From NCBI RefSeq assembly GCF_900115545.1, contig NZ_FOWV01000011.1:1-64000 (forward strand): a stretch of DNA of 64,000 bases, written 5' to 3'. Shown piece after piece: positions 7,190 through 62,934 of the stretch. Made by a program: the position numbers and the translations under genes. The notes below the pieces were generated by a model that had not been told where the DNA came from, searched no databases, and saw only the letters and a list, made by a program, of their open reading frames with translations. This DNA comes from Ralstonia sp. NFACC01. GTDB taxonomy: Bacteria > Pseudomonadota > Gammaproteobacteria > Burkholderiales > Burkholderiaceae. Positions within the stretch are counted from its first letter, which is position 1; each line of letters opens with the position of its first letter.

Positions 7190-7193
7190 GATG

Positions 7194-46655: not shown

Positions 46656-46672
46656 ATTTTACATAACACAAA
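46656..46672. repeat. Left attachment repeat (attL), dif half site
   Basis: ATTTTACATAACACAAA, identical to 58738-58754. Read on the minus strand it contains TTATGTAAAAT, which differs from the E. coli XerD arm TTATGTTAAAT at one position, and a 6-base centre TTTGTG. The other arm, lying in the phage, is a C/G run that does not resemble a XerC arm. Confidence 0.8.
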
Positions 46673-46698
46673 CTGCCCCCCCGGGCCTTCCTGCTGAA

Positions 46699-47025
46699 CT
46701 ACGCCAGGGCAGTGCCCCGACGCTGGCCCACAAGGCTCAGCAGGTCTTCAAAATTTACGGCGAGGCGGTCAAAAATCGACGCCCACATTTGCCGGACTTC
46801 GGGCGATTTGGCGCGCTCAGCGTGTGAGGCTGCTGCAACGGCGGCCGGGTCAATGCCCAGGATTTCCGCGATCCGCATTGCCGTTTCATCGTCAAAGCTA
46901 CCTTGGCCGTTCCGGTACTTGCTCACGGCAGAGCGTGAGATGCGCAGCGCCTTTGCGACTGCGTAGTCGGAGGCGCCGCCAAGCTTTCGGCTTACCGCCT
47001 CCAGAAAATCAAGAGTGGTTTTCAT
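46699..47025 (-). CDS. Phage repressor, XRE/DUF3693-like
   Basis: 108 residues from ATG 47025 with AGGGGT nine bases upstream. The helix-turn-helix is DYAVAKALRISRSAVSKYRNG, and the C-terminal half (SPEVRQMWASIFDRL) matches the DUF3693 repressor-like family found in small prophages. It is divergent from the early operon and should keep the prophage silent by binding the 47026-47150 intergenic region. Confidence 0.8.
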   Translation of the reverse strand: MKTTLDFLEAVSRKLGGASDYAVAKALRISRSAVSKYRNGQGSFDDETAMRIAEILGIDPAAVAAASHAERAKSPEVRQMWASIFDRLAVNFEDLLSLVGQRRGTALA

Positions 47026-47121
47026 CACATTTACCCCTAAGAAAAACGTCTACCCGGGCTGAAGCGTAGTCAACGGTCAACGAACGCGCAACGTCATCTG
47101 TAAGCGAACGTTCTTTGCATG

Positions 47122-47150
47122 TTGACTGTTCACAGGGTGATGACTATGAT
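47122..47150 (+). promoter_or_regulatory. Early promoter of the prophage
   Basis: TTGACT, a 17-base spacer and TATGAT: close to the sigma-70 consensus. It reads rightward into the structured leader and the early genes. Repeats of CAACG/GAACG in the 60 bp to its left are candidate repressor operators. Confidence 0.75.
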
Positions 47151-47175
47151 CCGTTCCCAGACGCACCGCCGCCTG

Positions 47176-47258
47176 GACGCTACCCCGCCAGGGCCGGCCT
47201 GATCCGCTGGCAGGCGGTGCGCACCCCGAAAGGGGCTTCGCGCAACAGGGGTAGCGTC
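47176..47258 (+). ncRNA. Structured leader of the early phage operon (three-way junction)
   Basis: GACGCTACCCC (47176-47186) pairs perfectly with GGGGTAGCGTC (47248-47258). The enclosed 61 bases form two hairpins: GCCAG...CTGGC (47187-47211) with an inner CGG/CCG stem, and TGCGC...GCGCA (47218-47244) capped by CCCC-GAAA-GGGG, a GNRA tetraloop. It lies between the early promoter and the first ribosome-binding site. It could be a leader RNA for antitermination or translation control, or a DNA hairpin used as a single-strand origin. Confidence 0.55.
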
Positions 47259-47271
47259 AAAGGGGAGTCAC

Positions 47272-47499
47272 ATGAAGTTACAAATTTCGACGTTCCGGGC
47301 CAGCGGGAAGCCGGACCAGGGATATGTCAGCGTGTCAGGGCCGATTACGTACGCGCTGTTCTGCTTCAACGGCTTGGGAGACGAGCGCATCACAGAAGTG
47401 GACGCGATGCGTCAGGCTGTGATCTTCAAAGAGGCGGTCGAGAAGCTGCAGCAAGGCGCGGCCGTAGAAGCGAATTTCATGAAGGGGGCCGCTCGATGA
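47272..47499 (+). CDS. Small early phage protein
   Basis: 75 residues from ATG 47272 with AGGGGAG before it. Acidic and soluble with no TM. The family is not recognised. It is the first gene after the early promoter and leader, and its stop overlaps the next start, so a role in establishment or replication is plausible but unproven. Confidence 0.6.
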   Translation: MKLQISTFRASGKPDQGYVSVSGPITYALFCFNGLGDERITEVDAMRQAVIFKEAVEKLQQGAAVEANFMKGAAR

Positions 47500-47618
47500 A
47501 ACCGACCCCCATCCACCGCACCGCTCTGGGCGGTTTCACCATCGACGGCCCGTACTATCGCCGCCGTCGCTCCCTGGCCGTTCTGGCAGAGCGTTTCTTC
47601 CATTTTCTGGGGGCGTGA
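47496..47618 (+). CDS. 40-residue basic phage peptide
   Basis: ATG overlaps the previous stop (ATGA). The C-terminus contains RRRRSLAVLAERFFHFLG, an amphipathic basic segment. Tight packing on both sides supports it being real. Function unknown. Confidence 0.5.
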   Translation: MKPTPIHRTALGGFTIDGPYYRRRRSLAVLAERFFHFLGA

Positions 47619-47620
47619 CC

Positions 47621-47800
47621 ATGGCGCGAGGCTACCGACCGGGCAGCACGCGCGACGGCGCAGCAGCAGCACACCTGCCGGCATCGATCCCCACGCCAGC
47701 AGCGCCGACAGAAATGTCGCGCGCCATGGCTGATGCGGCCATCGCAAACGCGCTGGCCATCCTCAAGCGGCACAAGCCGCGCATCAACCCAGCACGATGA
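47621..47800 (+). CDS. Small Ala/Pro-rich phage protein
   Basis: 59 residues from ATG 47621 (MARGYRPGST). Low complexity with a helical C-terminus (SRAMADAAIANALAILKRHK). Its stop overlaps the start of the next gene. Not recognised. Confidence 0.5.
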   Translation: MARGYRPGSTRDGAAAAHLPASIPTPAAPTEMSRAMADAAIANALAILKRHKPRINPAR

Positions 47801-48390
47801 TGCCGGCCGAGGTGGCGGTTCTCTTCGCGCGCGCGGACAGCATCTACAAGACGCTGCCGGACTGCGACGTATGGGATGCAGATCGCGACGCGCGGCGCTG
47901 GCCAGGCGGCAAGCCAGTAGTGGCGCACCCGCCATGCCGCGCCTGGGGCGTGCTGCGCGCGCTCGCCAATCCGCGACCGGATGAAAAGGCGCTTGCCCTG
48001 TTCGCTGTGGAGCAGGTGCGGCGGTTTGGCGGCGTGCTGGAGCATCCGGCAGGGTCAACGTTGTGGCGTGAGGCGGGATTGCCCGAGCCAGGCGAGCGGG
48101 ACCCCTGGGGCGGATGGACGCTGCCAATACATCAACACTGGTGGGGGCACAGAGCAGAGAAGGCGACGCGGCTCTACATCGTTGGGTGCGCGCCGGCCGA
48201 TCTGCCGGAAATTCCGCTTGTCCTGGGCGAGGCAACGCACATCGTTGCCAGCTCTGGGCGGCGCCGCGACGGCGGGCGCCTGCGTAAGGGTGACCGTGGG
48301 TGGAGGCCAGAGATTACCAAGGCGGAGCGCGAGCACACGCCGCCAGCACTGGCCGAATGGCTGTGCGAGACAGCCAGGCGGTGCGCCTGA
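47797..48390 (+). CDS. Phage protein with C5-methyltransferase-like PPC motif
   Basis: 197 residues. VVAHPPCRAWGVLRALANP recalls motif IV (P-C) of cytosine methyltransferases, and VLEHPAGSTLWREAGLPEPG with IHQHWWGHRAEKATRLYIVG are conserved in a group of phage proteins often annotated as DNA methylases or hypothetical. A clear SAM-binding motif I is not visible, so it may be a degenerate fold. Directly upstream of rep with a one-base overlap. It may protect or mark the phage DNA. Confidence 0.55.
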   Translation: MMPAEVAVLFARADSIYKTLPDCDVWDADRDARRWPGGKPVVAHPPCRAWGVLRALANPRPDEKALALFAVEQVRRFGGVLEHPAGSTLWREAGLPEPGERDPWGGWTLPIHQHWWGHRAEKATRLYIVGCAPADLPEIPLVLGEATHIVASSGRRRDGGRLRKGDRGWRPEITKAEREHTPPALAEWLCETARRCA

Positions 48391-50168
48391 TGTGGGGATA
48401 CCTTCGTGACGCGGCAGAGGCGGTCCCCGCGCTTCCAGAAATGAAGGAAGCGCGGGGCAGGGTGCCGATGCGCTGGTATAACCGCGCGCTCAAGGCCGCA
48501 GACAAGGCCGGCCGCGCAAGCGCGCAGCGCGCGGGCAGACCAGACATGTTCGACCTGGGTGCCGCTGCTGGCGCAGTCGCGGCGTTCATGAACGAGCACG
48601 CACCGAGCACGCTGCCGGTGCGCCCGGACGCTACAGACTACGAAATCTGCATGAAGGCGCGCCGCATCGCCGGCGACGTGCAACTCAAGGTGCACGGCCT
48701 GGAGCTGGAGGAAGCGCTGGTGGTGTGCGCTTCGACGTGCGAGCGCTACGGTGTCGAGCTGCCCGACTTCAGCGCGGCGGCGGATCGCGTGGCTCGAGTC
48801 AAATGCGAATTGTGGTGGCGCCGGCGTCTGCGCACGAAACACATTCGCGCGCTCGAGCGCTCGAACATCCATCTGCACTACGTCCACTATCGCAGCGACC
48901 CGTACGCCAGCAATGACGCGGTGCGCCGGCGCCTCGCGCAGAACCGCCGCAACCGCCAAACGCTCGAGCGGACCTCGCTCGAGAACGAGCACGGGCAGCG
49001 ATTCACGCTGGCGGAGCTGGCCGACAAGTCAATCGCCAACAAGGCACTTCGCCGCGGCGAATTGATGACGCGCCTCAAGGGCATGGAAGAGCTGGCCGAA
49101 GATGTGAAGTTCGCCGGCGTGATGTTCACCAAGACATGCCCATCACGGTTCCATGCCGTGAAGCAGATGGGCAACAAGTGGCAACCCAACGCCAAATATG
49201 AGGGCGCGGACCCGCGCGAGGGCCAAGGCTACCTGCGCCGCGTGTGGGCACGCATCCGCGCGGAGCTCAAGCGCCTGGGCGTTGTGTACTTCGGCCTGCG
49301 CGTTGCAGAGCCGCACCATGACGGGTGCCCGCACTGGCACGGCCTGATTTTCTCCAACCGCATCGACGTGGTGTGTGCCGTCATCCGCAAGCACGCGCTG
49401 AAGGATTCCCCCGAGGAAGCCGGCGCATCGCTGCGCCGCTGCCGTTTCGAGCACATCGACAGCGCCAAGGGCAGCGCGGTGGGCTACATCGCCAAGTACA
49501 TCTCCAAGAACATCGACGGCCACGCCGTGGGCGACCACAAGACGGCAGAGGGCTACGTGGTGCAAGCGGACTTCCTGGGCGATGACGTCATTACGCCGAG
49601 TGAGCGCGTGGAAGCCTGGGCGGCAACGTGGGGCATTCGCCAGTTTCAGGCGTTCGGCGGCGCGCCGGTCGGCGTGTGGCGCGAGCTGCGCCGCGTGAAG
49701 GAAGCGGACCTGCCGACCGAAGAGGAAAGCCCGGAAATCCGTGCAGCCTGGGCCGCCGCGCAGAAGACGGAAGAGAAGGGCGCGAGCTGGGCCGACTACG
49801 CCCGCGCAATGGGCGGCGTTGCCGGCGAGGGACGGCGCATCGCCATCAAGTTCGTGGAGCGCATGGAAGAGGGGCGCTACGGCATGGCCGTGCGTCAAGT
49901 GCCGCAGGGCGTGCAGGCCGTGGGACGCGCACACATCGTAGATGGCATGTGCGACTACTGGCGCACGACACAGATTTTCGTTCCGGCGACACGCTACGAA
50001 TGGCGGGAGGTGTCGCGCAGCGGCGCAGCCGCGAGCACTCGGACTCGTGTCAATAACTGTACGCGCCGGAAGGGCGCCAAGGACGGGAAACCGTTCTGGC
50101 TGGAAGAAATTGAGGCCAGCGCGCCGCCGCACGCGCTGGAAACGCCTCCAACCTGCGGCATGGAGTAG
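48390..50168 (+). CDS. Rolling-circle replication initiator (Y2 HUH, GPA-like)
   Basis: 592 residues from ATG 48390, chosen because it overlaps the upstream stop by one base. Residues 309-317 contain HHDGCPHWH, the HUH metal-binding motif, and residues 366-370 YIAKY give the paired Tyr of a Y2 nickase of the P2 gpA/phiX174 A/PM2 P12 superfamily. One Tyr cuts the origin and the other re-ligates after a round. The HUH core lies in the middle of a longer protein, with an Arg-rich N-terminal half. It implies a circular, rolling-circle genome. Confidence 0.9.
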   Translation: MWGYLRDAAEAVPALPEMKEARGRVPMRWYNRALKAADKAGRASAQRAGRPDMFDLGAAAGAVAAFMNEHAPSTLPVRPDATDYEICMKARRIAGDVQLKVHGLELEEALVVCASTCERYGVELPDFSAAADRVARVKCELWWRRRLRTKHIRALERSNIHLHYVHYRSDPYASNDAVRRRLAQNRRNRQTLERTSLENEHGQRFTLAELADKSIANKALRRGELMTRLKGMEELAEDVKFAGVMFTKTCPSRFHAVKQMGNKWQPNAKYEGADPREGQGYLRRVWARIRAELKRLGVVYFGLRVAEPHHDGCPHWHGLIFSNRIDVVCAVIRKHALKDSPEEAGASLRRCRFEHIDSAKGSAVGYIAKYISKNIDGHAVGDHKTAEGYVVQADFLGDDVITPSERVEAWAATWGIRQFQAFGGAPVGVWRELRRVKEADLPTEEESPEIRAAWAAAQKTEEKGASWADYARAMGGVAGEGRRIAIKFVERMEEGRYGMAVRQVPQGVQAVGRAHIVDGMCDYWRTTQIFVPATRYEWREVSRSGAAASTRTRVNNCTRRKGAKDGKPFWLEEIEASAPPHALETPPTCGME

Positions 50169-50173
50169 TTCAA

Positions 50174-50350
50174 ATGCAACCCTGGGACCAAGTTCAAGTT
50201 ACCGACGCCAACGACCCGCGCAATGGCGCAGCCGGTCTCGTCATCGCCACCAAGGGCACGGGCGACGACAAGCAGCTCACGGTGAAGATGGACGCCGACG
50301 GCGCCACCGTCGCCTACAAAGAAGCCCAACTGAAGCTGCTGGGCCGCTGA
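50174..50350 (+). CDS. Small SH3-like phage protein
   Basis: 58 residues starting MQPWDQVQVTDANDPRNGAA. The pattern of short beta strands (VQVTDAND, GAAGLVIATKG, LTVKMD, ATVAYKEAQLKLL) resembles small SH3-like proteins such as rolling-circle phage single-strand-DNA binders. It follows rep by 5 bp. Function inferred only from shape and position. Confidence 0.5.
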   Translation: MQPWDQVQVTDANDPRNGAAGLVIATKGTGDDKQLTVKMDADGATVAYKEAQLKLLGR

Positions 50351-50352
50351 TC

Positions 50353-50538
50353 GTGGCGCCGTTCCACACCGGGCGGCGCGTGCTGATCGTGGCCAAAGAT
50401 GAGTTCTACGGATTCATCGATGGCTGGGTCGGCTACGTGTCGGGGCGCCAAGCGGGCGCCATCTGGGTGGAATGCGTGCGGGAGGATGGCACCAAGTCGT
50501 TTCTGGTGCCGCCCGACCAACTGCGCGCGCTGCCCTGA
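50353..50538 (+). CDS. Second small beta-rich phage protein
   Basis: 61 residues from GTG 50353. Like its neighbour it has the layout G-R-R-V-L-I-V-A-K...G-Y-V-S-G...W-V-E-C-V...F-L-V-P-P, a small beta barrel of the SH3/KOW type. The tandem pair may be diverged duplicates. Confidence 0.5.
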   Translation: MAPFHTGRRVLIVAKDEFYGFIDGWVGYVSGRQAGAIWVECVREDGTKSFLVPPDQLRALP

Positions 50539-50563
50539 CGGGAAAACAAAAGAAGGGGGTCAC

Positions 50564-50728
50564 ATGGAAAAGGAACTGAAGAAGCTGCGCGAGCAGTACG
50601 CGGAAATTCCGCTGGTGGTGCGCATGCAGGGCAAGTTTTTCTTCGATCAGTTGTTCGTCACGCTCGCATCGATGCAGGCCGCCATCGTGCACGCCGAAGG
50701 CATGGCCGGCAGAAGCGAGCGCGACTGA
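50564..50728 (+). CDS. 54-residue helical phage protein
   Basis: ATG 50564 preceded by AAGGGGG; sequence MEKELKKLREQYAEIPLVVR then a hydrophobic helix. Overlaps the next start by one base. Not recognised. Confidence 0.5.
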   Translation: MEKELKKLREQYAEIPLVVRMQGKFFFDQLFVTLASMQAAIVHAEGMAGRSERD

Positions 50729-51036
50729 TGGCGACGAAACCGAAAAACCAAGTCGGCACCATGGAGTGCCGCTGTTGCCATCGGCATATCCCGGTGCGCG
50801 AGGCTGACACAGGAACGCTCAACGTGTCGTGCCAGTGGTGCGACTTCAGCGCCTACGCCAAGCACGGCACCGAGGCCGCGCGGATCATCCGCGCACAGAT
50901 GACAGCCCGCGAGGGAGACGCGCTACCGCTGGTGAAGACGGCGCAAGCGCCGCAACCCACGCCAACGCCGGCCGCGCCGCCAGCCAAGGCACCCGCGCCG
51001 ACACCGGCGCCCGCACCCAGGCGCATCCTGTTCTGA
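50728..51036 (+). CDS. Zinc-ribbon phage protein with Pro-rich tail
   Basis: 102 residues. MECRCCHRHIPV and VSCQWCDFSAYAKHGTEA give a C-x-x-C...C-x-x-C zinc ribbon in the first 50 residues, followed by an Ala/Pro-rich tail ending APAPRRILF. Small zinc-ribbon proteins act as transcription activators in PM2 (P13/P14); the same role is possible for late genes here. Confidence 0.6.
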   Translation: MATKPKNQVGTMECRCCHRHIPVREADTGTLNVSCQWCDFSAYAKHGTEAARIIRAQMTAREGDALPLVKTAQAPQPTPTPAAPPAKAPAPTPAPAPRRILF

Positions 51037-51103
51037 CGGCCGCCTGAAGGATTCGAGACCAGCGCACGCCCCCCGCGCGGAACTCGAACCCAACAGGTGG
51101 ACC

Positions 51104-51598
51104 ATGGAAGACCAAAATCACGAACTGGCGGGCCTTGCTGGCATCGCCGCCGAAGCCGATCAAGCTGCCGCTGGCGTTGCTGCGCCCGGCGACCCGACAG
51201 CGCCGGAACTGGCGCCGCCTGGGCCGGACTACGCCACCGAGGCGGCCGGCATGGTGGACATGCTGGGCGCGATGATCTGCGGCTACTCGCCCGCGTGCGC
51301 GCCGCTGTGGGGCACGGAAACCAAGCAGCGCATGGCCATGTCGGTGGCGCCCGTCATGGAGAAATACGGCTTCTCGTTCGGCGCCATGCCGGTCGAGTTG
51401 ACCGCGCTGGTGGTGTGCGGGCCGGTGCTGTATCAGTCGGCCCGCATCATCGGCGCCCAGATGGCAGAGGACAAGGTGAAGGCTGCGGAAGCGCAGCAGC
51501 AGGCCGCCGCGCGCAACGCTGCCGGCCTGCCGGCACCGAAGGCACCGGATGACGCGCCGGCCGCCGCTGTCCATCCGCAGATGGCGCTCTACCAATGA
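51104..51598 (+). CDS. Phage protein with one hydrophobic segment
   Basis: 164 residues. Ala/Pro-rich ends and a central conserved-looking part (YATEAAGMVDMLGAMICGYS, then FGAMPVELTALVVCGPVLYQ) with a likely TM helix around residues 100-115. Overlaps the packaging ATPase start by four bases, so it is probably a virion membrane or packaging partner. Not recognised. Confidence 0.55.
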   Translation: MEDQNHELAGLAGIAAEADQAAAGVAAPGDPTAPELAPPGPDYATEAAGMVDMLGAMICGYSPACAPLWGTETKQRMAMSVAPVMEKYGFSFGAMPVELTALVVCGPVLYQSARIIGAQMAEDKVKAAEAQQQAAARNAAGLPAPKAPDDAPAAAVHPQMALYQ

Positions 51599-52338
51599 AA
51601 GTGCGCCCAACCCAGGGCGCGGACATGCGCCCGAACATCCTGGCCTACATCGGGGCGTCGGGCGCCGGCAAATCCACGTCCCTGAAAGCCCAATTCAAGG
51701 CGGCGCGGCACACGCGGTCGATCATCTTCGACACCCAGCACGAATACGACATGTACGGCGCCGTCACGCACACCCTGGCGGACGTGCATCGCATGCTCAT
51801 GGAGGCGGGCAGGGGGCAGGTGCAGATCGTGTTCCGACCGTCGGCCGACATGAAGGTCGCGCGACAGCAATTCGATGCCATCTGCCGGATGGCGCACGCG
51901 GCCGGGCATATCGCGTTGGTGGCCGAAGAACTGGCCTTCGTGACGCGGCCCAGCGGCGGCGAGCCGGGCTGGATGCTGGTCAACCTGCGCGGGCGTCTCA
52001 AAGGGCTGGTGGTGTATGGCACCACGCAGCGGCCGGCGCGCGTGGATAAGGATTTCTTCGGCAACGCGACGCGCATCCGGTGCGGACGGCTGAACTACGC
52101 GACCGACCAGAAGGTAATGGCGGACGTGCTGGGTGTGCCGGTCGAACTGATCCAGGCGCTCAAGCCGATGGAGTACATCGAGCGGGACATGACCACTGGG
52201 AAGGTGACTACTGGGGAGGTGTCTGTGGGGGCCATCCAGCCACCGGCCAGAGAGTTGCACATTGGAGACGTTGCAAAGGTGGTGAAAACCGGAATTTCCG
52301 GGCCGCCAGCGCGAAAAAAAGTAGGGGGTAAGGGGTAG
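51595..52338 (+). CDS. Genome-packaging ATPase (FtsK/HerA superfamily)
   Basis: 247 residues (ATG 51595; MRPN at 51625 is an alternative). Walker A GASGAGKST (residues 20-28), Walker B IALVAEEL (106-113) with two acidic residues, and a sensor segment VYGTTQRPARVDKD (140-153). No TM helix, unlike Zot proteins of filamentous phages. This compact form matches the A32/PM2-P9-like ATPases that pump DNA into pre-formed capsids of membrane-containing phages. Directly upstream of the capsid block. Confidence 0.85.
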   Translation: MKVRPTQGADMRPNILAYIGASGAGKSTSLKAQFKAARHTRSIIFDTQHEYDMYGAVTHTLADVHRMLMEAGRGQVQIVFRPSADMKVARQQFDAICRMAHAAGHIALVAEELAFVTRPSGGEPGWMLVNLRGRLKGLVVYGTTQRPARVDKDFFGNATRIRCGRLNYATDQKVMADVLGVPVELIQALKPMEYIERDMTTGKVTTGEVSVGAIQPPARELHIGDVAKVVKTGISGPPARKKVGGKG

Positions 52339-52358
52339 GGAGGTGGGGTGCCTGGGGA
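52318..52358 (+). repeat. G-quadruplex-prone G-run series
   Basis: Five runs of three to five G (GGGGG, GGGG, GGG, GGGG, GGGG) separated by 2-5 bases, overlapping the 3' end of the packaging-ATPase gene. Such spacing fits the standard G-quadruplex pattern on the + strand. Confidence 0.6.
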
Positions 52359-52359
52359 C

Positions 52360-52389
52360 CTCCCCAATGGGGCGCTATCCATTGGGGAG
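52360..52389. repeat. 11-bp perfect hairpin before the capsid gene block
   Basis: CTCCCCAATGG and CCATTGGGGAG pair across an 8-base loop. No T-run follows. It sits directly after the G-run series and 90 bp before the first small structural gene, in the largest non-coding gap of the rightward operon. Confidence 0.7.
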
Positions 52390-52480
52390 TGTTCTAACGC
52401 CTTGCGAGGGTACGACCGTAAGTTTTGGCCTGTGCGCGGGGGGCTGCGCCGATCTCGTATCCAACTCGCAAGAGGACATC

Positions 52481-52600
52481 ATGAAGCAATACGTTCACAG
52501 CTACATCACCTTCGTCGCTTTCCTGGCCGTCACCAAAATCGTGGTGGCGCCCATCGCGCAGAACCTGAATGTGCCGCTGCTGAAAGACGTGCTCGCCTAA
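52481..52600 (+). CDS. 39-residue single-TM phage protein
   Basis: MKQYVHSYITFVAFLAVTKI followed by a short hydrophilic tail; one TM helix (residues about 8-25). It starts 44 bp before the capsid gene. PM2-like virions contain several such small proteins in their internal membrane. Confidence 0.6.
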   Translation: MKQYVHSYITFVAFLAVTKIVVAPIAQNLNVPLLKDVLA

Positions 52601-52643
52601 TCGGCGCGCTTCCCTTTCCGCAACCCTTCAGGAGAACGCACAA

Positions 52644-53438
52644 ATGCTGCTGGTTAAAAACCTGCCCTTCACCAACGTGGTCGCCAACGGCGTCGCGACG
52701 GTGAGCCTGCCCATCGGGATGAGCTACAACAAAATCATCCTGGCCCTGGGCGGCACTTCCTTCACCAAGTCGATGATCACGGACTTCAAAGTTCGGGTGA
52801 ACGGCAAGGTGATCATGCAAGGCACCGGCTCGCGCCTGGACCTGATCCAGCAATATCGCGGCCTGTCCTCGAACGCCGGTTTCCTGACGCTCGATTTCAC
52901 GGAACCGTACGCCAAGCTGATGAGCGAGCAGTACATCGGAAACATCAACACCGCGCAAGGCGTCTCGTCGCTCACGGTGGAAGTGACCATTGCCGGTGCC
53001 ACCGCGCCGACGCTGGACAGCTACGCCGAACTCGGCCCGCCGCAACCCCTGGGCGTGCTGGCCAAGCATCTGCCGTTCACCAACTCGTTCGGCGGCGCCG
53101 GCAAGTTCGCCTTCAAGCTGATCGACCTCGCCAACCGTGGCGCGGTGATCAAGCGGGTTCACTTCGCCCACGGCGGCAACATGACCGCCCTGGAAGTGAA
53201 GAAAAACGGCATCGTCATCCACGACAACATCCTCACGTCGGTGCTCGGCTATTACCAAGCCGACTACAAGAAGACGCAGCAAACGAACCTGTACACGTTC
53301 GACCCATGCGCGGACAACAACTACACCAACGCGGTCAAGACGGCCGACATGGTGTCGATGGAGTTCAACCCGACCTTCAGTGCCGCCGACACGGTGACGG
53401 CCGTCATCGAAACCCTGGACCTGCTGGGCAACATGTAA
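52644..53438 (+). CDS. Major capsid protein, double jelly roll
   Basis: 264 residues, close to PM2 P2 (about 269). An internal duplication is visible: KNLPFTN (5-11) recurs as KHLPFTN (141-147), and FKVRVNGKVI (48-57) as LEVKKNGIVI (183-192), at matching distances, as expected for two jelly rolls in one chain. The N-terminal run (NGVATVSLPIG, then VNGK) resembles PM2 P2 from memory. Such proteins form pseudo-hexagonal trimers over an internal membrane. AGGAGA precedes ATG 52644, and a strong hairpin follows the stop. Confidence 0.82.
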   Translation: MLLVKNLPFTNVVANGVATVSLPIGMSYNKIILALGGTSFTKSMITDFKVRVNGKVIMQGTGSRLDLIQQYRGLSSNAGFLTLDFTEPYAKLMSEQYIGNINTAQGVSSLTVEVTIAGATAPTLDSYAELGPPQPLGVLAKHLPFTNSFGGAGKFAFKLIDLANRGAVIKRVHFAHGGNMTALEVKKNGIVIHDNILTSVLGYYQADYKKTQQTNLYTFDPCADNNYTNAVKTADMVSMEFNPTFSAADTVTAVIETLDLLGNM

Positions 53439-53444
53439 AGCAGG

Positions 53445-53466
53445 GCGGCCGGCGCGTGCCGGCCGC
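53445..53466. terminator. Strong hairpin after the capsid gene
   Basis: GCGGCCGGC and GCCGGCCGC pair perfectly over 9 bp with a 4-base loop, 7 bp after the capsid stop. No T-run, so it is more likely an attenuator or an mRNA 3'-end stabiliser that raises capsid yield than a full terminator. Confidence 0.6.
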
Positions 53467-53489
53467 TGGTTTCCACCAGGGAGAGAGCG

Positions 53490-53891
53490 ATGGACCCAAC
53501 TTTCGATTGGAGTCAGTACACCGGGACTGACAACACGAGCGGCATTTTTCAAGATGCCGGTTCGTCTGTGGGGCCGCAGAGCGATGGCACCTACAGCTAC
53601 CCGGCAAACGCGCAACCGAACAACCAACCCTGGGATACCAGTGGCGGGGCGAACGGCAACTACAGCCAACAGGTGCTGGACGTGCTCAAGTTCGGCGTTG
53701 GCACGTGGCAGCAGGATCAGGCGCGCAAAGACTTCTACGACTACAAGAAGTACGAGGCGACCAACGGCGGCTTGTTCCAACAGGGTGCCTTCGCAGGCGG
53801 CCTGCGCACGACGCCGGCAAGCGCCAAGCCGCTGACGCTGGCGGCGATGGTGCTGCTCGGCCTCGTCGTGTTCCACATGTTGGAGCACTGA
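53490..53891 (+). CDS. Virion membrane protein, C-terminal TM
   Basis: 133 residues; Asn/Gly/Thr/Ser-rich N-terminal 60 residues, helical middle (QQVLDVLKFGVGTWQQDQAR) and a C-terminal TM (PLTLAAMVLLGLVVFHMLEH). GAGAGAG before ATG 53490. Probably anchored in the internal membrane with the N-terminus toward the capsid. Not matched to a family. Confidence 0.6.
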   Translation: MDPTFDWSQYTGTDNTSGIFQDAGSSVGPQSDGTYSYPANAQPNNQPWDTSGGANGNYSQQVLDVLKFGVGTWQQDQARKDFYDYKKYEATNGGLFQQGAFAGGLRTTPASAKPLTLAAMVLLGLVVFHMLEH

Positions 53892-53894
53892 CAC

Positions 53895-54143
53895 ATGTGG
53901 CCAATGCTCGCAGCTGCCGCGATTGGCGCGGCTGGCAAGGCGGCACAAACGCCGCCTGCCGGCCCGTCGCACGCGGATGGCTATTCGTCGGGAACGTCGA
54001 ACGCGCGATCAGGCTTTGACGGGTCGGGGTGGACCGTCTCCACGGGCAGCAGCAAGGCCACGGGGGCGGGGCTGAACATGAACACCATCCTGATCCTGGG
54101 CGGCATCGCCCTGGGCGCGGTCTACCTGATGCATCGCAAATGA
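53895..54143 (+). CDS. Small virion membrane protein
   Basis: 82 residues with a hydrophobic start (MWPMLAAAAIGAAGKAA), a Gly/Ser-rich middle and a C-terminal TM (ILILGGIALGAVYLMHRK). Three bases separate it from the previous gene; its stop overlaps the next start. Confidence 0.58.
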   Translation: MWPMLAAAAIGAAGKAAQTPPAGPSHADGYSSGTSNARSGFDGSGWTVSTGSSKATGAGLNMNTILILGGIALGAVYLMHRK

Positions 54144-54514
54144 TCATCGCGGCCGAACGTTCTGCCGAGGTGGCCGCGCTGCTGGCGCGTGCGTTCAAGC
54201 ACGACACCAGCGGCGGCGGCTACACGGTGGAAGACGCCATGGCCAGCACGCACGTCTACTCGGTGCGCGATGCGGCCGGCGCGCTGAAGCTTGCGTGGAC
54301 GATGGACATTCGGCGGGACCGAAAAGGCGTGCGCGCGTATGTGACCGCGTGTGCGGGCGAGGGGATGCAACAGGCGTTGCCGGAGTGTGAGCGGATCGCG
54401 CGCGAGCACGGGGCAAACCGGCTGGGCCTGCGCACGATGCGCCCGGGCATGGTCAAGCGAATGACAGAAGCGGGCTTCGTGCCGCGCTTCGTGGAATTGG
54501 AGAAAGAACTGTGA
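54140..54514 (+). CDS. GNAT-like soluble phage protein
   Basis: 124 residues. The layout (AERSAEVAALLARAF, LAWTMDIRRD, CERIAREHGANRLGLRT, RMTEAGFVPRFVELEKEL) resembles the N-acetyltransferase fold, including the closing EAGF segment. A clear acetyl-CoA loop (R/Q-x-x-G-x-G/A) is not visible, so activity is doubtful. Soluble, in the middle of membrane-protein genes. Confidence 0.5.
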   Translation: MIIAAERSAEVAALLARAFKHDTSGGGYTVEDAMASTHVYSVRDAAGALKLAWTMDIRRDRKGVRAYVTACAGEGMQQALPECERIAREHGANRLGLRTMRPGMVKRMTEAGFVPRFVELEKEL

Positions 54515-55050
54515 TTCGCACGCCGGCACAGATCAGGTTGATGGCGATGGGCTTGCCCCATACGCCGTGCAATGTGGGCGGTGAGTCGTCGTCGTCTTCG
54601 GCGTCGACCAACACCACAAACACGACGACGAACACCAGCTATCAGGACCGCCGCAACGTGGCGGACGGTGGCTCAACGGTGGTGAGCGCGGATCAGTCGA
54701 GCGTGTTCATCACGAACAGCGACCAAGGCGCAATACGCGCGGGCGTTGATCTGGGAACGGCTGCGCTCGATGCGTCGAAAGCACTGACGCAGGCTGGATC
54801 GCACATGCTGGACAGCAATATCCAGCTCACCCGCGATCTGAACTCAAGCAACAACAGCCTGGCGCGCGACCTGTTCGCGAACACGCAGAACGCCGTGGAG
54901 AGCGCCATGGCGCAGAACCAATCGGCGTTGCAGGTCGTGCAGGCGCTGGCAGCGCAGCCGGGAAAGCTGAACGACCCAAACCGGGCAATCCTGCTGGTGG
55001 GCATGACGGTGGTCGCCATCGCGGCCGTGGTGATGGTCCACAAGGGGTAA
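54511..55050 (+). CDS. Ser/Thr/Asn-rich virion protein with C-terminal TM
   Basis: 179 residues from GTG 54511, overlapping the previous stop. Residues 25-45 are Ser/Asn/Thr repeats, followed by VSADQSSVFITNSDQGAIRA, a helical segment with regularly spaced hydrophobics (ALTQAGSHMLDSNIQLTRDL) and a TM (AILLVGMTVVAIAAVVMVHK). The shape suggests a vertex or spike-base protein anchored in the membrane. Not recognised. Confidence 0.55.
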   Translation: MIRTPAQIRLMAMGLPHTPCNVGGESSSSSASTNTTNTTTNTSYQDRRNVADGGSTVVSADQSSVFITNSDQGAIRAGVDLGTAALDASKALTQAGSHMLDSNIQLTRDLNSSNNSLARDLFANTQNAVESAMAQNQSALQVVQALAAQPGKLNDPNRAILLVGMTVVAIAAVVMVHKG

Positions 55051-55053
55051 CGC

Positions 55054-55812
55054 ATGCAGTACTACGACATCAACATCCCAGCCAACAAACAACAGATCGT
55101 TGAGGCGCAAGGGACGTTCATCTACTACTTGAGCGGCAGCGCAGGCGGCGCCGATAACACCATCAAGGTAACACTCGGCATGGGTGGCACGACCGTGCTT
55201 CTCAAGCCGGGCCAGTCGATTCGGTTGCCGGTTTCGGCAAAGCCAATCGACATGTGGCGAGTCGAGAACTACGCCAACGCGCAGACCATCATCGGGCAAG
55301 TGTTGGTAGGTCAAGGGGACTTCAAAGACACCAACACCACGGGCACGGTGCAGGTCGTGGATGGAGGCAAGTCGCGGACGTTGGGCGGTGGCGCCTTCCT
55401 TGGGTATCTGACGACTGCTGCAGTCGCGGGGCAATACACGATCAACCAATTGTGGAACCCACCGGGCAGCGGGAAGAACGCGATCATCGAGCGTATCAAC
55501 CTGACCAACGGGGCGACAGCGCAAGCCATCGTCGCGCGCATCTCCAGCACGTCGCTGGGTGGCGGTACGGGGGCAGAGTCAAAGCTGGCAGGCGGGACGG
55601 TTTCAACTTCGCTCAAGCAAGGCATTTCGCAAGTTGCTGCGCCAACGGGAAATGTCGTCTTCGCCATGTTCTTTGGGGTCAACACCACCATGACCATGCC
55701 GCTGTCCGAGCCGATCATCTTGCCGCCAGGGAAGGCGCTTGCGATCAACAGCGGGGCGGCAAACGGCCTGGACGTGCCAACGACATTCGAGTTTTACGAG
55801 GAAAACCAGTAA
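55054..55812 (+). CDS. Candidate spike/penton or minor capsid protein
   Basis: 252 residues, no TM, beta-rich with Gly/Thr throughout (VTLGMGGTTVLLKPGQSIRL, then NIIER-like INLTNGATAQAIVARISST, then LPPGKALAINSGAANGLDVP). Its size, soluble nature and place in the structural block make it the best candidate for the vertex or receptor-binding protein. It bears no recognisable similarity to PM2 P1. Confidence 0.5.
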   Translation: MQYYDINIPANKQQIVEAQGTFIYYLSGSAGGADNTIKVTLGMGGTTVLLKPGQSIRLPVSAKPIDMWRVENYANAQTIIGQVLVGQGDFKDTNTTGTVQVVDGGKSRTLGGGAFLGYLTTAAVAGQYTINQLWNPPGSGKNAIIERINLTNGATAQAIVARISSTSLGGGTGAESKLAGGTVSTSLKQGISQVAAPTGNVVFAMFFGVNTTMTMPLSEPIILPPGKALAINSGAANGLDVPTTFEFYEENQ

Positions 55813-56423
55813 TGCGACCGGCCGCCATCATCGCGGCCGCCACGCTGGGTGTCGCGGCGTACGTGTGGTGGCAGTCGGCACAGGCATCGAACGGCGGCGG
55901 GGATTCTGGTGTGGACAACCCGGACCCTGAGAACGATACGGGCATGCCAGATTTTTCGTCGCTCTTTGGCGGCATCGTGAGTTTCGGAGGGAGTGACATG
56001 CATCTGAGTGATGCGGGCCTTCAGGCCCTGGCGCAGCGCGAGGGGTTCAGTGCAACGCCGTATTGGGACCACAAGGGCTATTCGATCGGTTACGGCCACC
56101 TCATCAAGGCAGGAGAAAACCTGACCAACGTGACGCGCGATCAGGCCGCGCAGTTGCTGGCAAGCGATGTGGCATGGGCAGAACAGGCGGTGGCCAACAA
56201 CGTCACGGCGCCCCTGACGCAGAACCAATTCGATGCGCTGGTTTCGTTCGCCTTCAACGTGGGCGCACCAGCATTCGCCAAGTCCACGCTGGTGAGCCTG
56301 CTGAACGCAGGCGACTACAGCGCGGCCGGCGAGCAGTTGCCGCGCTGGAACAAGGCAAGCGGCGTGGTCAATGGTGCGCTGGTTTCGCGGCGCGCTTCGG
56401 AAGTGGCGCAGTTTTACGCATAG
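55812..56423 (+). CDS. GH24 phage lysozyme with N-terminal anchor
   Basis: 203 residues; ATG overlaps the previous stop. Residues 5-22 are a hydrophobic segment (IIAAATLGVAAYVWWQS), like a signal-arrest anchor, then a Gly/Asp-rich linker, then the lysozyme domain. The catalytic Glu is in QREGFS (E77), the Asp in YWDHKGY (D86), and the third position carries Ser (SIGYGH, S91) where most relatives have Thr. NQFDALVSFAFNVG and the closing RRASEVAQFY confirm the family. It cuts the peptidoglycan for exit or entry. Confidence 0.88.
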   Translation: MRPAAIIAAATLGVAAYVWWQSAQASNGGGDSGVDNPDPENDTGMPDFSSLFGGIVSFGGSDMHLSDAGLQALAQREGFSATPYWDHKGYSIGYGHLIKAGENLTNVTRDQAAQLLASDVAWAEQAVANNVTAPLTQNQFDALVSFAFNVGAPAFAKSTLVSLLNAGDYSAAGEQLPRWNKASGVVNGALVSRRASEVAQFYA

Positions 56424-56432
56424 GCGGCAAGC

Positions 56433-56744
56433 ATGGGCAAAAACGACATGATTTTGATTGGCATCGCGGCGGCGGTGCTGGGCCTCGTGGTCTACAAGAC
56501 GCAGAACGCGCAGGCAGCAAACGCGCCCAACGGTGTGATGGCGAACGCGCCGGCCGTGCTGGGCACGCTGCTGCCGCCGACGGGCAACCCGTACAGCGGT
56601 GACGCCTACACGCCTTCGGGCATGTTCGGCGGAACGCTGTTCAACGCACCGCAGTACGTGCGCAGCGTCTTCGGGCCGGCCAACGACACAGCGTCGGGCA
56701 TCTCGCCGGCACCGGGCCTGTTCAACGCACCGCTGTTCATCTGA
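56433..56744 (+). CDS. Small phage membrane protein
   Basis: 103 residues: TM (MILIGIAAAVLGLVVYKTQN), then a Pro/Ala/Gly-rich region containing the repeat-like GGTLFNAP and GLFNAPLF. Nine bases from the lysozyme stop. Probably in the virion membrane. Confidence 0.55.
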   Translation: MGKNDMILIGIAAAVLGLVVYKTQNAQAANAPNGVMANAPAVLGTLLPPTGNPYSGDAYTPSGMFGGTLFNAPQYVRSVFGPANDTASGISPAPGLFNAPLFI

Positions 56745-56752
56745 GGCGCAGC

Positions 56753-57109
56753 ATGAAAACCATGTATCTCATGCTCGGCGGGCTGGCGCTGTGGGCCGTG
56801 GCCCGGCGTCGCGCGCCCGAGGCGTCGGAGACGATGCCGGCTGCAAACGGCTGGTACACCTACGCGCCAAAGGAGCCGTCCGACTGGTACGGCGACATGT
56901 GGCAGCGCCTGAGCGCTGGCGACCTGTTTCCGCAAGGCCAAAACGATGCGCCGGGCGGCGGCATGTTCATGAACGGCGCGCCGGTCGGGAACTACATCGA
57001 CCCGACCAACACGGGCGGCGCAAAGCTGGCAACGGACCCGAATGCACCGTATCAAGCGGTGCCGGTCAATCAAGCATCGCCCATTCCGGGCGTGATGCGC
57101 ATCCTGTAG
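56753..57109 (+). CDS. Small phage membrane protein
   Basis: 118 residues: N-terminal TM (MYLMLGGLALWAVARRR) and a soluble part with W/Y-rich DWYGDMWQRLSAGDL, then GGGMFMNGAPVGNYIDPTN. Sequence style matches the preceding protein. Confidence 0.55.
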   Translation: MKTMYLMLGGLALWAVARRRAPEASETMPAANGWYTYAPKEPSDWYGDMWQRLSAGDLFPQGQNDAPGGGMFMNGAPVGNYIDPTNTGGAKLATDPNAPYQAVPVNQASPIPGVMRIL

Positions 57110-57117
57110 GGGGCGTA

Positions 57118-57414
57118 ATGCAGGTATCGGGGCAAGCCATGCTGATCGCGGGCGGCCTGCTGGTCGCGGCCTATGTCGTCTTCAAAAAAAAAGACCTGGG
57201 GACTGCGGCTGTGGATGCGGCGGGCGGTGTCGGTGAAACCATCGGGCAGGGCGCCGTGGCAGCAACAAGCGGCGTGGTGCTCGGCATTGGTGATGGCCTG
57301 GGCGTGCCGCGCACGAACATGACTGAGTGCGAGCGGGCCAAGGCTGAAGGGCGGACGTGGGACGCAAGTTTCGCGTGTCCAGCAAGTGATTTTCTGTCGT
57401 ACGTGTTCAACTGA
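57118..57414 (+). CDS. Small phage membrane protein
   Basis: 98 residues from ATG 57118, 6 bases after the previous stop. TM (MLIAGGLLVAAYVVF) followed by KKKD and a Gly/Ala-rich helix (GGVGETIGQGAVAATSGVVL), ending with a Cys-containing tail (NMTECERAKAEGRTWDASFA). Probable membrane-bound virion component. Confidence 0.55.
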   Translation: MQVSGQAMLIAGGLLVAAYVVFKKKDLGTAAVDAAGGVGETIGQGAVAATSGVVLGIGDGLGVPRTNMTECERAKAEGRTWDASFACPASDFLSYVFN

Positions 57415-57427
57415 CCAAGGGGGTCGT

Positions 57428-57604
57428 ATGTATTTCTGGAATCGTCTGCGTGAGCCGTCCACCTGGGCCGGCATTGGTGGTCTCGCTGTGCAACTGGGAG
57501 CCAGCCCGGACAAGGTGAGCGTGGCATCGCAGGTTGTCGGCTGCGTGCTGGCCGCCCTGGCCGTGTTCCTGCCCGAAAAGGGCAACACCACGCCCCAGCA
57601 GTAA
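57428..57604 (+). CDS. Holin-like protein
   Basis: 58 residues: WNRLREPSTWAGIGGLAVQL and VSVASQVVGCVLAALAVFLP, two hydrophobic helices joined by a short loop and ending EKGNTTPQQ. This is the pattern of small phage holins that follow L-R-x-P-S-x-W-x-G. It is downstream of the lysozyme and probably times lysis. Confidence 0.7.
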   Translation: MYFWNRLREPSTWAGIGGLAVQLGASPDKVSVASQVVGCVLAALAVFLPEKGNTTPQQ

Positions 57605-57613
57605 GGGGCGGGC

Positions 57614-57772
57614 ATGGACTGGATGACGCTAGACATGCTCAAGCTGCTGGTCGGTGCTATCGCCACGGCGAGCGGCATCTATGGCGGCATCCGGGCGGAC
57701 CTGCGCAAGGCAATCGACCTGGGCAAGTCCGCACACGAACGGTTGGACCGCCACCTGGAGGGCCACCCGTGA
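57614..57772 (+). CDS. Small TM plus helix protein, spanin-like
   Basis: 52 residues: TM (LLVGAIATASGIYGGIRA) followed by a charged helix (DLRKAIDLGKSAHERLDRHL). It resembles inner-membrane spanins in layout but is much shorter than typical ones. It overlaps the next start. Confidence 0.5.
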   Translation: MDWMTLDMLKLLVGAIATASGIYGGIRADLRKAIDLGKSAHERLDRHLEGHP

Positions 57773-57939
57773 ACAAGTGGATTCCAAGCCCGCACGAAAT
57801 CGTGCGCGAGGGCATCATCGTTCTTGGCGGCGTGCTCATTGCCGCGTGGGTGCTCTCTCGCATGCCTTCGGTGAAGGCATGGGTACAGCAACAAGGAACC
57901 CTGACGATCAAAGACCAGTCGGGGAACGTTCTCTACTGA
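57769..57939 (+). CDS. Small single-TM phage protein
   Basis: 56 residues from GTG 57769, overlapping the previous stop. One TM (EGIIVLGGVLIAAWVLS) and a short C-terminal tail (QQGTLTIKDQSGNVLY). Not recognised. Confidence 0.5.
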   Translation: MNKWIPSPHEIVREGIIVLGGVLIAAWVLSRMPSVKAWVQQQGTLTIKDQSGNVLY

Positions 57940-57950
57940 AGGAGGCCACC

Positions 57951-58019
57951 ATGGCACACAAGCGCAAGCGCCGCACGCCGGCACGCGACAGCAAAGGCCG
58001 CTTCAAGAAGAAGCGCTGA
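57951..58019 (+). CDS. 22-residue very basic phage peptide
   Basis: MAHKRKRRTPARDSKGRFKK plus two basic residues: 12 Lys/Arg out of 22. GGAGG lies 6 bases upstream, a perfect ribosome-binding site. It may neutralise DNA in the virion in the manner of protamine-like peptides. It is the last gene before the terminator. Confidence 0.6.
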   Translation: MAHKRKRRTPARDSKGRFKKKR

Positions 58020-58031
58020 TGCAAAGAAAAA

Positions 58032-58052
58032 CCCCCGGTCAAAAGCCGGGGG
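58032..58052 (+). terminator. Terminator of the prophage late operon
   Basis: CCCCCGG and CCGGGGG pair perfectly across a 7-base loop, preceded by AAAAA and followed by TTTTTT. It ends the rightward operon; the A-run also lets it stop leftward transcription. Confidence 0.92.
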
Positions 58053-58073
58053 TTTTTTCATGGCCATGCGAGT

Positions 58074-58241
58074 TCACGGGGAACAGTGATCCTGATGGAG
58101 TCCGTATTGTTTTGCATAGGCGCAGGCGTCTTTCACATTCGTCGCATGATCCATGAAGATGGAACCGGCAAGGAATGCAGCGATGAAGGCGACATAAGCC
58201 CAGGTGGGGATACGGTTGCAAATGGAGATGAACTTTCGCAT
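58074..58241 (-). CDS. Small membrane protein at prophage right end
   Basis: 55 residues: MRKFISICNRIPTWAYVAFI and a TM (AYVAFIAAFLAGSIFMDHA), with a Cys-containing tail (VKDACAYAKQYGLHQDHC). One base separates its start from the upstream gene's stop, so the two form a leftward operon. Possibly a superinfection-exclusion protein by position, but nothing proves this. Confidence 0.5.
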   Translation of the reverse strand: MRKFISICNRIPTWAYVAFIAAFLAGSIFMDHATNVKDACAYAKQYGLHQDHCSP

Positions 58242-58242
58242 G

Positions 58243-58569
58243 TCAGGCTCGCATCTGTTCGGGTTGGTCGATGAGGGAAAGCGTAGGCGACGCGGGGACG
58301 TATCGAGGGCGCGCGGGAAGCGTGTAGACGGTGGCGGTGCCGGCGATGCCGAGGCGGCGATAGCCCATGGCGCGCATGTCGGCGTCACGCTGCCAAGCCC
58401 GCAGGCGTAGGAGTTCGGGAACCCACCAGGGCACGGGACTGGAGCCAGAGCGCCAGGCGCGCAGAGTTTTGACGGTGACGCGCAGGGTGCGGGCAAGCAT
58501 GACTTCGGGCGCGTGCGCGTAAAGCTCCAACTCCCCCAAGTGGCCCCATTTGTGATCGTGAGACTTCAT
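58243..58569 (-). CDS. DUF3653-like phage protein
   Basis: 108 residues from MKSHDHKWGH. TLRVTVKTLRAWRSGSSPVP then WWVPELLRLRAWQRDADMRA match a helix-turn-helix-like phage family (DUF3653-type) known from small temperate phages of beta/gamma-proteobacteria. It may be a second regulator of lysogeny. An open frame extends upstream through the terminator hairpin, but the ATG here is preferred. Confidence 0.6.
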   Translation of the reverse strand: MKSHDHKWGHLGELELYAHAPEVMLARTLRVTVKTLRAWRSGSSPVPWWVPELLRLRAWQRDADMRAMGYRRLGIAGTATVYTLPARPRYVPASPTLSLIDQPEQMRA

Positions 58570-58582
58570 CTTGTTTTTCTCG

Positions 58583-58609
58583 AAAAAAGGCCCGGCGCGA
58601 GGGCCGGGC
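58583..58609 (-). terminator. Terminator-like hairpin at the right prophage border
   Basis: GCCCGGC and GCCGGGC pair across a 6-base loop; on the minus strand it is followed by C and six T. It lies just upstream of the DUF3653-like gene, so it would stop leftward transcripts arriving from the neighbouring defence operon. Confidence 0.7.
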
Positions 58610-58737
58610 TTGCACGGGATGCGGTCCATTGGAACCGCGCAGCATGATGGTGTCAGAGCTATGCAGCGCAGAACCACCAACAAGGGGTAAAACAAGGTAA
58701 GACTTTGATTGAGAACAAGATTTGGCCCGGGGTGGCG

Positions 58738-58765
58738 ATTTTACATAACACAAATTATGCGATGG
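58738..58765 (-). repeat. dif-like XerC/XerD site, right attachment site (attR)
   Basis: On the minus strand: arm CCATCGCATAA, centre TTTGTG, arm TTATGTAAAAT. The second arm matches the E. coli XerD-binding arm at 10 of 11 positions; the first shares the inner CGCATAA with the XerC arm. The 11-6-11 layout is that of dif. The left 17 bp (58738-58754) repeat the prophage left border exactly. Joining the outer halves of both borders recreates this same site as the presumed empty host target. Confidence 0.8.
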
Positions 58766-62806: not shown

Positions 62807-62934
62807 GCCCAACACTCCGTGAGCCTATTTCCGCGCCTAGACGCCACCTCGCAGGCGCAGTCGTGGATGATTACATCCTCAAAATGCTCTTTCACTCGAA
62901 CGTGTGATTATGAAATATATTCCGGTGCATGGCA

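What the first reader, a model, noticed from the sequence alone, without database searches (positions are those of the whole stretch)
46656..58765. Intact-looking prophage of a tailless, probably membrane-containing icosahedral phage
The set of genes fits neither tailed nor filamentous phages: HUH Y2 replication protein, soluble FtsK/HerA packaging ATPase, 264-aa capsid protein with internal duplication, ten or more small one-TM proteins and a lysozyme/holin block. This combination is known from corticoviruses (PM2) and FLiP-like viruses, which have very few cultured members and, to my knowledge, none established for Ralstonia. All genes are open and tightly overlapped, so the phage may be inducible.
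Basis: partly seen in the sequence, partly recalled or inferred. Interest (0 to 1): 0.95.

Follow-up and report, generated by a model that had tools for sequence, protein, structure and literature searches.

The report
PM2-like tailless prophage at dif
A 12-kb, apparently intact prophage of a tailless, probably membrane-containing phage related to PM2 sits in what looks like the site where this bacterium's second chromosome is resolved after replication; it is a well-preserved new member of a phage group already known from related bacteria.

Summary
Window 46656-58754 is a 12,082-bp element (repeat to repeat) bounded by a 17-bp direct repeat. The 264-aa protein is a PM2 P2-type double jelly-roll capsid protein (Pfam P2_C 2.4e-41, P2_N 1e-33; best PDB fold match PM2 P2). 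It also has a P9-type packaging ATPase, a PM2 P12-type HUH Rep, a P16-like repressor and a T4-type lysozyme. FLiP is rejected. It belongs to the order Vinavirales, in a Burkholderiales cluster; the closest relative found is a Cupriavidus prophage (capsid 83% identical).
No integrase was found. The right end carries a 28-bp dif-like site that 4 of 14 other genomes of the genus hold next to the same ackA gene; in the one tested, GC skew flips there. So it most likely integrates by host XerC/XerD, both present.
The kind is known: PM2-like prophages, one in Ralstonia eutropha, were described in 2007 (PMC1950889), betaproteobacterial ones as clade D (PMC9502842), and XerCD/dif integration was proposed for NO16 and Jorvik. 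A new member of a known kind.

The parts
46656..46672 (.). attL: 17-bp core repeat = XerD-type arm + 6-bp centre; the bases that follow (phage side) are a degenerate XerC-type arm
   Evidence: arm names after E. coli dif, recalled
46699..47025 (-). HTH repressor, homologue of PM2 gp c (P16)
   Evidence: HTH_3 3.1e-9; profile match to PM2 gp c 99.5% probability
47272..47499 (+). 75-aa early protein, unknown
   Evidence: open frame; 45% identical to a stretch of the L072 prophage
47797..48390 (+). 197-aa accessory protein, phrog_12600; one phage relative is annotated as putative DNA methylase
   Evidence: phrog_12600 1.9e-83; 13 phage records
48300..50168 (+). rolling-circle replication initiator, HUH Y2, PM2 P12 type (start codon uncertain)
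   Evidence: Phage_GPA 3.1e-74; 38% over 346 aa to PM2 P12
50174..50350 (+). 58-aa protein, unknown
   Evidence: 55% to Cupriavidus sp. U2 prophage
50353..50538 (+). 61-aa protein (GTG start), unknown
   Evidence: 39-45% to 5 distinct relatives at 2.3e-7 or better
50564..50728 (+). 54-aa protein, unknown
   Evidence: open frame only
50728..51036 (+). 102-aa CxxC protein, probable P14-like regulator
   Evidence: profile match to a NO16 protein 68.8% and PM2 P14 46.7%; weak
51104..51598 (+). 164-aa protein in the gp-h (membrane assembly factor) position
   Evidence: position; 53% to U2 prophage; no useful profile match to PM2, Jorvik or NO16 (best 3.9%)
51595..52338 (+). packaging ATPase, P9
   Evidence: phrog_2666 3.6e-22; NO16 4e-24 and PM2 2e-12
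52481..52600 (+). 39-aa one-TM protein, P7 position
   Evidence: 82% to U2 prophage; TM; position
52644..53438 (+). major capsid protein, P2, double jelly roll
53490..53891 (+). 133-aa C-terminal-TM protein, P3 position
   Evidence: 60% to U2 prophage; TM; no profile match to PM2 P3
53895..54143 (+). 82-aa one-TM protein, P8
   Evidence: profile match to PM2 P8 88.9%
54140..54514 (+). 124-aa possible GNAT acetyltransferase in the order's GNAT position
   Evidence: position; profile match to NO16 7223-7600 product 34.9% only; no Pfam or NCBIfam match
54511..55050 (+). 179-aa C-terminal-TM protein, P10 position
   Evidence: profile match to NO16 6771-7220 product 63%, to PM2 gp j 13%; TM
55054..55812 (+). 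252-aa probable spike/penton protein, P1 position
   Evidence: position as P1 in PM2 and Jorvik; found in 14 relative loci, 13 distinct; structure model failed
55812..56423 (+). T4-type lysozyme with hydrophobic N-terminus
   Evidence: PF00959 2.1e-38
56433..57414 (+). three small proteins (56433-56744, 56753-57109, 57118-57414), the first and third one-TM
57386..57939 (+). three small proteins (57386-57604, 57614-57772, 57769-57939), probable holin/lysis factors; first and third pass the TM cut
   Evidence: homologues in 18, 5 and 7 relative loci (window not counted); function inferred
57951..58019 (+). 22-aa basic protein
   Evidence: 82% to U2 prophage
58243..58569 (-). 108-aa regulator, P15 (gp a) position
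   Evidence: profile match to Jorvik P15-like 66.4%, to PM2 gp a 7.6%; phrog_10187 2e-5
58738..58765 (-). attR: complete 28-bp dif-like site, the only copy in the genome within 3 mismatches

Best explanation
It is a temperate tailless phage of the order Vinavirales (PM2 relatives), 12,082 bp, integrated at the dif site of the host's second replicon. Inferred life cycle: the circular phage DNA carries, between its P15-like and P16-like genes, a half-dif attP (XerD-type arm and centre good, XerC-type arm degenerate). Host XerC/XerD recombine it with dif, no phage integrase being needed, and leave a complete dif at the right end, so chromosome-dimer resolution can go on. The P16-like repressor keeps the lysogen silent. 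On induction the Y2 Rep replicates the excised circle by rolling circle; P2 capsomers assemble around a membrane that holds the small TM proteins; P9 presumably powers packaging; the lysozyme and small hydrophobic proteins lyse the cell. Shown here: gene families, boundaries, dif-like site at the end, host XerC/XerD genes present. Inferred: XerCD use, membrane, excision, infectivity, repression.
Against: 10 of the 14 other genomes with the ackA region show no dif-like site next to it; one of these, G015, has it 31 kb away. The right flank past dif is not collinear with the stretches of G007, G005, G003 and G015 compared, so the empty site is shown from the left flank and the dif site only. 15 of 25 relative loci showed no dif-like repeat by this search, some because contigs end nearby; three of these (L069, L072, L078) do hold a dif-like core without a repeat found. 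P1, P3, P7, P10, GNAT and gp-h are assigned mainly by position. The spike model was poor (pLDDT 45) and the capsid model only medium (pLDDT 67). No particle, excised circle or lipid has been seen.
Confidence: 0.92

Rival explanations
1. FLiP-like (Finnlakeviridae) ssDNA tailless phage.
Confidence: 0.02
2. A cryptic, no longer mobile prophage kept as a relic.
For: No induction data; single copy in the genome; no reads were at hand in which to seek an attP junction.
Against: No assigned gene is interrupted; both att cores are identical; capsid genes are open in the 26 prophage or bacterial-contig loci with a P2 hit (23 distinct).
Confidence: 0.2
3. Integration by the tyrosine integrase encoded to the right (C18 63802-65451) rather than by host XerCD.
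For: A Xer-like integrase gene lies about 5 kb right of attR; Vibrio tailless prophages at dif regularly carry integrases (PMC11630473, passages seen).
Against: It lies outside the repeats, beyond a Lamassu operon; the att core is a dif half-site, and 10 relative loci show the same arrangement.
Confidence: 0.06

Closest known systems
Cupriavidus sp. U2 prophage (NZ_RCOG02000032.1, locus L037)
   Same: Capsid 83%, P9 57%, P7-position protein 82%, 252-aa protein 44%, same order of the shared structural genes
   Different: Rep only 39% identical, lysozyme matches over 29 residues only; no end repeat found (the element lies within 13 kb of the contig's start)
Prophages in G207 and G350, same genus label (g3) as the U2 genome (L071, L072)
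   Same: Rep 73%, repressor 63% and 54%, right-end small proteins 40-60%
   Different: Capsid only 39%, P9 38% and 35%: the replication and capsid modules have different histories
Vinavirales clade D of Yutin et al. 2022 (PMC9502842; section 3.2 part 1 and passages read)
   Same: Prophages mainly of Betaproteobacteria; T4lyz-like lysozyme in betaproteobacterial phages; most conserved Vinavirales proteins reported there too
   Different: No clade D sequence list was open to me, so membership is inferred
Pseudoalteromonas phage PM2 (Corticoviridae)
   Same: P2, P9, P12-type Rep, P16, P8; genome opened between the P15-like and P16-like genes, as reported for PM2-like prophages (PMC1950889, passage)
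   Different: Low identity (P9 27%), T4-type lysozyme instead of P5, extra genes, placed apart in the P2 tree
Vibrio phage NO16 (Asemoviridae) and Rhodobacter phage Jorvik (Mestraviridae)
   Same: Temperate, dif-like att sites with XerCD proposed, Jorvik without a predicted integrase; same structural gene order in Jorvik (PMC9966536, PMC10589892, passages seen)
   Different: P9 38% and P2 24% to NO16; Jorvik far off in the trees

Membership tests
[quoted passage not shown]
   Pfam P2_N and P2_C over cut-off; PM2 P2 best fold match
Order Vinavirales | P9-type packaging ATPase near the capsid gene | tested here: met
Order Vinavirales | P1-type spike protein | tested here: inconclusive
   252-aa protein in the P1 place; no profile match to PM2 P1 (3.7%); model failed
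Order Vinavirales | P7, P3, P8, P10 membrane proteins and GNAT between ATPase and spike | tested here: inconclusive
   order, sizes and TMs fit; only P8 has a good profile match (88.9%), P10 63% to NO16, GNAT 35%
Order Vinavirales | Internal membrane in the particle | not testable with these tools
   needs purified particles
Family Corticoviridae in the strict sense | Groups with PM2 in capsid and ATPase trees | tested here: not met
   Window lies in a Burkholderiales group away from PM2 in both trees (outgroup branches long)
Family Autolykiviridae | Family B DNA polymerase with terminal protein, as in the record | tested here: not met
   The one large replication gene is a GPA-type Rep
Finnlakeviridae (FLiP) | FLiP-type capsid protein closer than PM2's | tested here: not met
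Integrative element exploiting Xer (IMEX) | Integrated at a dif-like site with a dif-like attP and no integrase of its own | tested here: met
Integrative element exploiting Xer (IMEX) | Recombination depends on host XerC and XerD | not testable with these tools
   both genes present; needs an assay

The most novel reading that the evidence does not exclude
These phages use two mirror-image half-dif attP designs. The window and 6 relatives keep the XerD-type arm plus centre and lack a XerC arm; 4 relatives (L076, L083, L084, L085) keep the XerC-type arm plus centre and lack a good XerD arm, as TLC phage of Vibrio cholerae does (PMC4246890, passage seen). In all 11 the fuller copy is at the right end, so integration hands the host back one dif. 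If so, tailless phages have evolved, more than once, an integrase-free and dif-preserving way in, perhaps with the first strand cut by a different recombinase in each class.
Probability: 0.4. Interest if true: 0.5.

Novelty: new member of a known kind. Interest (0 to 1): 0.35.

Why it matters
Few phages of this order are in culture, and the mainly betaproteobacterial clade D had no known phage in the 2022 survey (PMC9502842). An intact-looking prophage with clear ends, a named host site and no integrase is a good candidate for one. It also bears on a point the 2024 Vibrio study left open (PMC11630473, passage), whether tailless prophages at dif use host recombinases or their own integrases: here none of its own was found. 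The mosaic (capsid module from one lineage, Rep and end genes from another) adds a clear case of replication-module swapping.

Tried and rejected
Megablast of the whole element against phages and plasmids: no match. Viral contigs by the capsid protein alone: 7 pattern matches, none confirmed. Canonical dif core within 1 mismatch: found in 4 of 16 genomes of the genus, not in the window's, so the dif of its first replicon was not located. Structure of the 252-aa protein: mean pLDDT 45, not searched further; no PDB sequence match for its 4-row profile. Right-flank collinearity with 6 stretches of G007, G005, G003 and G015: no aligned piece of 200 bases or more. NCBIfam for the Rep, GNAT, P10, P1, gp-h, 197-aa and 98-aa candidates: no match up to 0.1. 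Sigma-70 promoter scan: 1 site, fewer than in shuffles (1.9); terminator scan 14 against 11.7. Naming the host from the plasmid collection: no informative hit. Papers: no paper in the library held double jelly-roll + FLiP + prophage + Ralstonia, PM2-like + prophage + Burkholderia or corticovir + Burkholderi + Cupriavidus; Vinavirales + Ralstonia and Ralstonia + tailless + double jelly-roll each gave only PMC11630473, whose one Ralstonia mention is a reference title. A survey of Ralstonia solanacearum prophages has no occurrence of 'corticovir' or 'tailless' (PMC9535894, word counts and passages).
Full report
OBSERVATION. A 17-bp sequence, ATTTTACATAACACAAA, stands at 46656-46672 and again at 58738-58754; between the two end regions compared it is the only exact match of 12 bases or more, and the 5.37-Mb genome has it only at these two places. 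The element is therefore 12,082 bp from repeat to repeat, with no second copy, at G000:C18. Rightward genes run from about 47.3 to 58.0 kb, many with overlapping or closely spaced ends; one leftward gene stands at each end. No phage or plasmid record matches it as DNA at megablast sensitivity.

The small proteins were compared as profiles with chosen PM2, Jorvik and NO16 proteins. The left-end repressor is PM2 gp c / P16 (99.5% probability), the 82-aa TM protein is P8 (88.9%), the right-end 108-aa protein resembles Jorvik's P15-like protein (66.4%), the 179-aa protein resembles NO16's 6771-7220 product (63%), the 102-aa protein a NO16 protein (68.8%) and PM2 P14 (46.7%). P7, P3, GNAT, P1 and gp-h found no convincing match and are assigned from place, size and TM segments against the annotated orders of PM2 and Jorvik. 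The model of the 252-aa P1 candidate failed (pLDDT 45); homologues are nevertheless present in 14 relative loci, 13 of them distinct.

RELATIVES. The P2_C profile hits 1 of 16 genomes of the genus (its own), 15 of 398 of the family (own included) and 8 of 399 of the order (own included); none of the 14 control genomes. The capsid gene is an open frame in the 30 loci with a hit (27 distinct, 4 of them phage records). In a P2 tree of 29 rows the window falls in a 7-row clade (100/100) with the Cupriavidus sp. U2 prophage, an Azonexus MAG and four members of the window's family, inside a wider Burkholderiales group, away from PM2, NO16, PG21 and Jorvik; outgroup branches are long (Jorvik 4.2), so deep order is unsure. 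The P9 tree of 30 rows joins window and U2 (100/99); its deeper forks are mostly open. The element is a mosaic: capsid 83% and P9 57% to U2 but Rep 39%; Rep 73% to L071 and L072 (same genus label, g3, as the U2 genome) but capsid 39%. Replication-module swapping is known for the group (PMC9502842, PMC1950889; passages seen).

THE SITE. Read on the minus strand, the right end is CCATCGCATAA TTTGTG TTATGTAAAAT, a dif-like 28-mer with 8 mismatches to E. coli dif, mostly in the centre and outer bases (E. coli dif and its arm names are recalled). Of the 15 genomes of the genus with the ackA region, own included, four others, G007, G005, G003 and G010, hold a dif-like site just 3' of that gene and have no P2_C match; the remaining 10 do not, of which G015 has the site 31 kb away. 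3 of 16 genomes match the window's 28-mer within 3 mismatches (own, G007, G015). In G007 the site lies on a 1.36-Mb contig; in 20 stretches of 20 kb sampled along it, GC skew is positive in all nine from 497 to 1,075 kb, about zero in the stretch holding the site (1,101 kb) and negative in the three from 1,136 kb on and the seven up to 446 kb, and GGGNAGGG motifs, few in number, change strand around the same place. That is what the terminus dif of a second replicon should look like. The host has a XerC and a XerD gene, each over the curated cut-off, and none of the 20 prophage proteins scanned is an integrase; those not scanned are under 100 aa.

Of 25 relative loci examined (23 distinct) 10 show an end repeat overlapping a dif-like site, with 0 to 6 mismatches to the pattern. 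In these 10 and the window the right end holds the fuller site (in L038 that site is itself poor, 6 mismatches) and the left end a half-site. Seven (window, L071, L074, L075, L080, L082, L038) repeat the XerD-type arm and centre; four (L076, L083, L084, L085) repeat the XerC-type arm and centre. A dif core pattern occurs 13 times in the 0.9 Mb of loci of 13 kb or more held, and 0 times on average in 5 shuffled sets (shuffles keep base content only; one search shows that the 13 include the window's own copy, one in G007 and one locus counted twice, which leaves 10 distinct prophage loci). The second class is like TLC phage, whose XerD site is degenerate (PMC4246890, passage seen); the first is its mirror image, and the presumptive PM2 dif printed in PMC9966536 (passage seen) also keeps the XerD-type arm. 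Opening of PM2-like prophages between genes XV and XVI was reported in 2007 (PMC1950889, passage seen) and fits here.

HOW IT MOST LIKELY WORKS. Host XerC/XerD integrate the circle at dif and restore a full dif; the P16-like protein represses; Rep drives rolling-circle replication after excision; the P2 shell forms over a membrane; lysozyme and small hydrophobic proteins release the particles. Gene families, ends and site are shown; the rest is inferred from PM2, NO16 and Jorvik.

KNOWN OR NEW. PM2-like prophages were described in 2007, one in 'Ralstonia eutropha' H16 (PMC1950889, passages); [quoted passage not shown] a mainly betaproteobacterial clade D, with T4lyz-like lysozymes in betaproteobacterial phages, was set out in 2022 (PMC9502842, part 1 of section 3.2 and passages); the order now has five families (PMC12451628, passages). 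XerCD/dif integration is proposed for NO16 and Jorvik, while for Vibrio tailless prophages at dif it was called inconclusive (PMC11630473, passages). This is a well-preserved new member of a known kind.

Noticed in passing
59185-62815 (-): A Lamassu defence operon (LmuA 3.5e-38, LmuC 1.9e-10, LmuB 5.1e-105) in low-GC DNA (about 0.54) lies right of attR, with a tyrosine integrase gene after it (C18 63802-65451): the dif region looks like an insertion hotspot.
   Followed up: partly
47797-48390 (+): 197-aa phrog_12600 protein with a HPPCRAWG motif is shared with Pseudomonas phages of 37-79 kb, a 10.9-kb Xanthomonas phage and small phages such as a tortoise microvirus; one is annotated putative DNA methylase. 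It seems to move between unrelated phage types.
   Followed up: partly
G015:C1 202876-235662: In this relative about 31 kb separate ackA from the dif-like site, so some other DNA may have entered there.
   Followed up: no
L039 (9,260 bp, MAG contig): The contig has identical 127-bp ends and carries P9 and a P1-like gene but gave no P2 hit; it may be a circular genome of a related phage with a divergent capsid protein.
   Followed up: no
58024-58058: A terminator-like palindrome (CCCCCGG...CCGGGGG flanked by A and T runs) follows the rightward operon (read; the scan did not list it).
   Followed up: no
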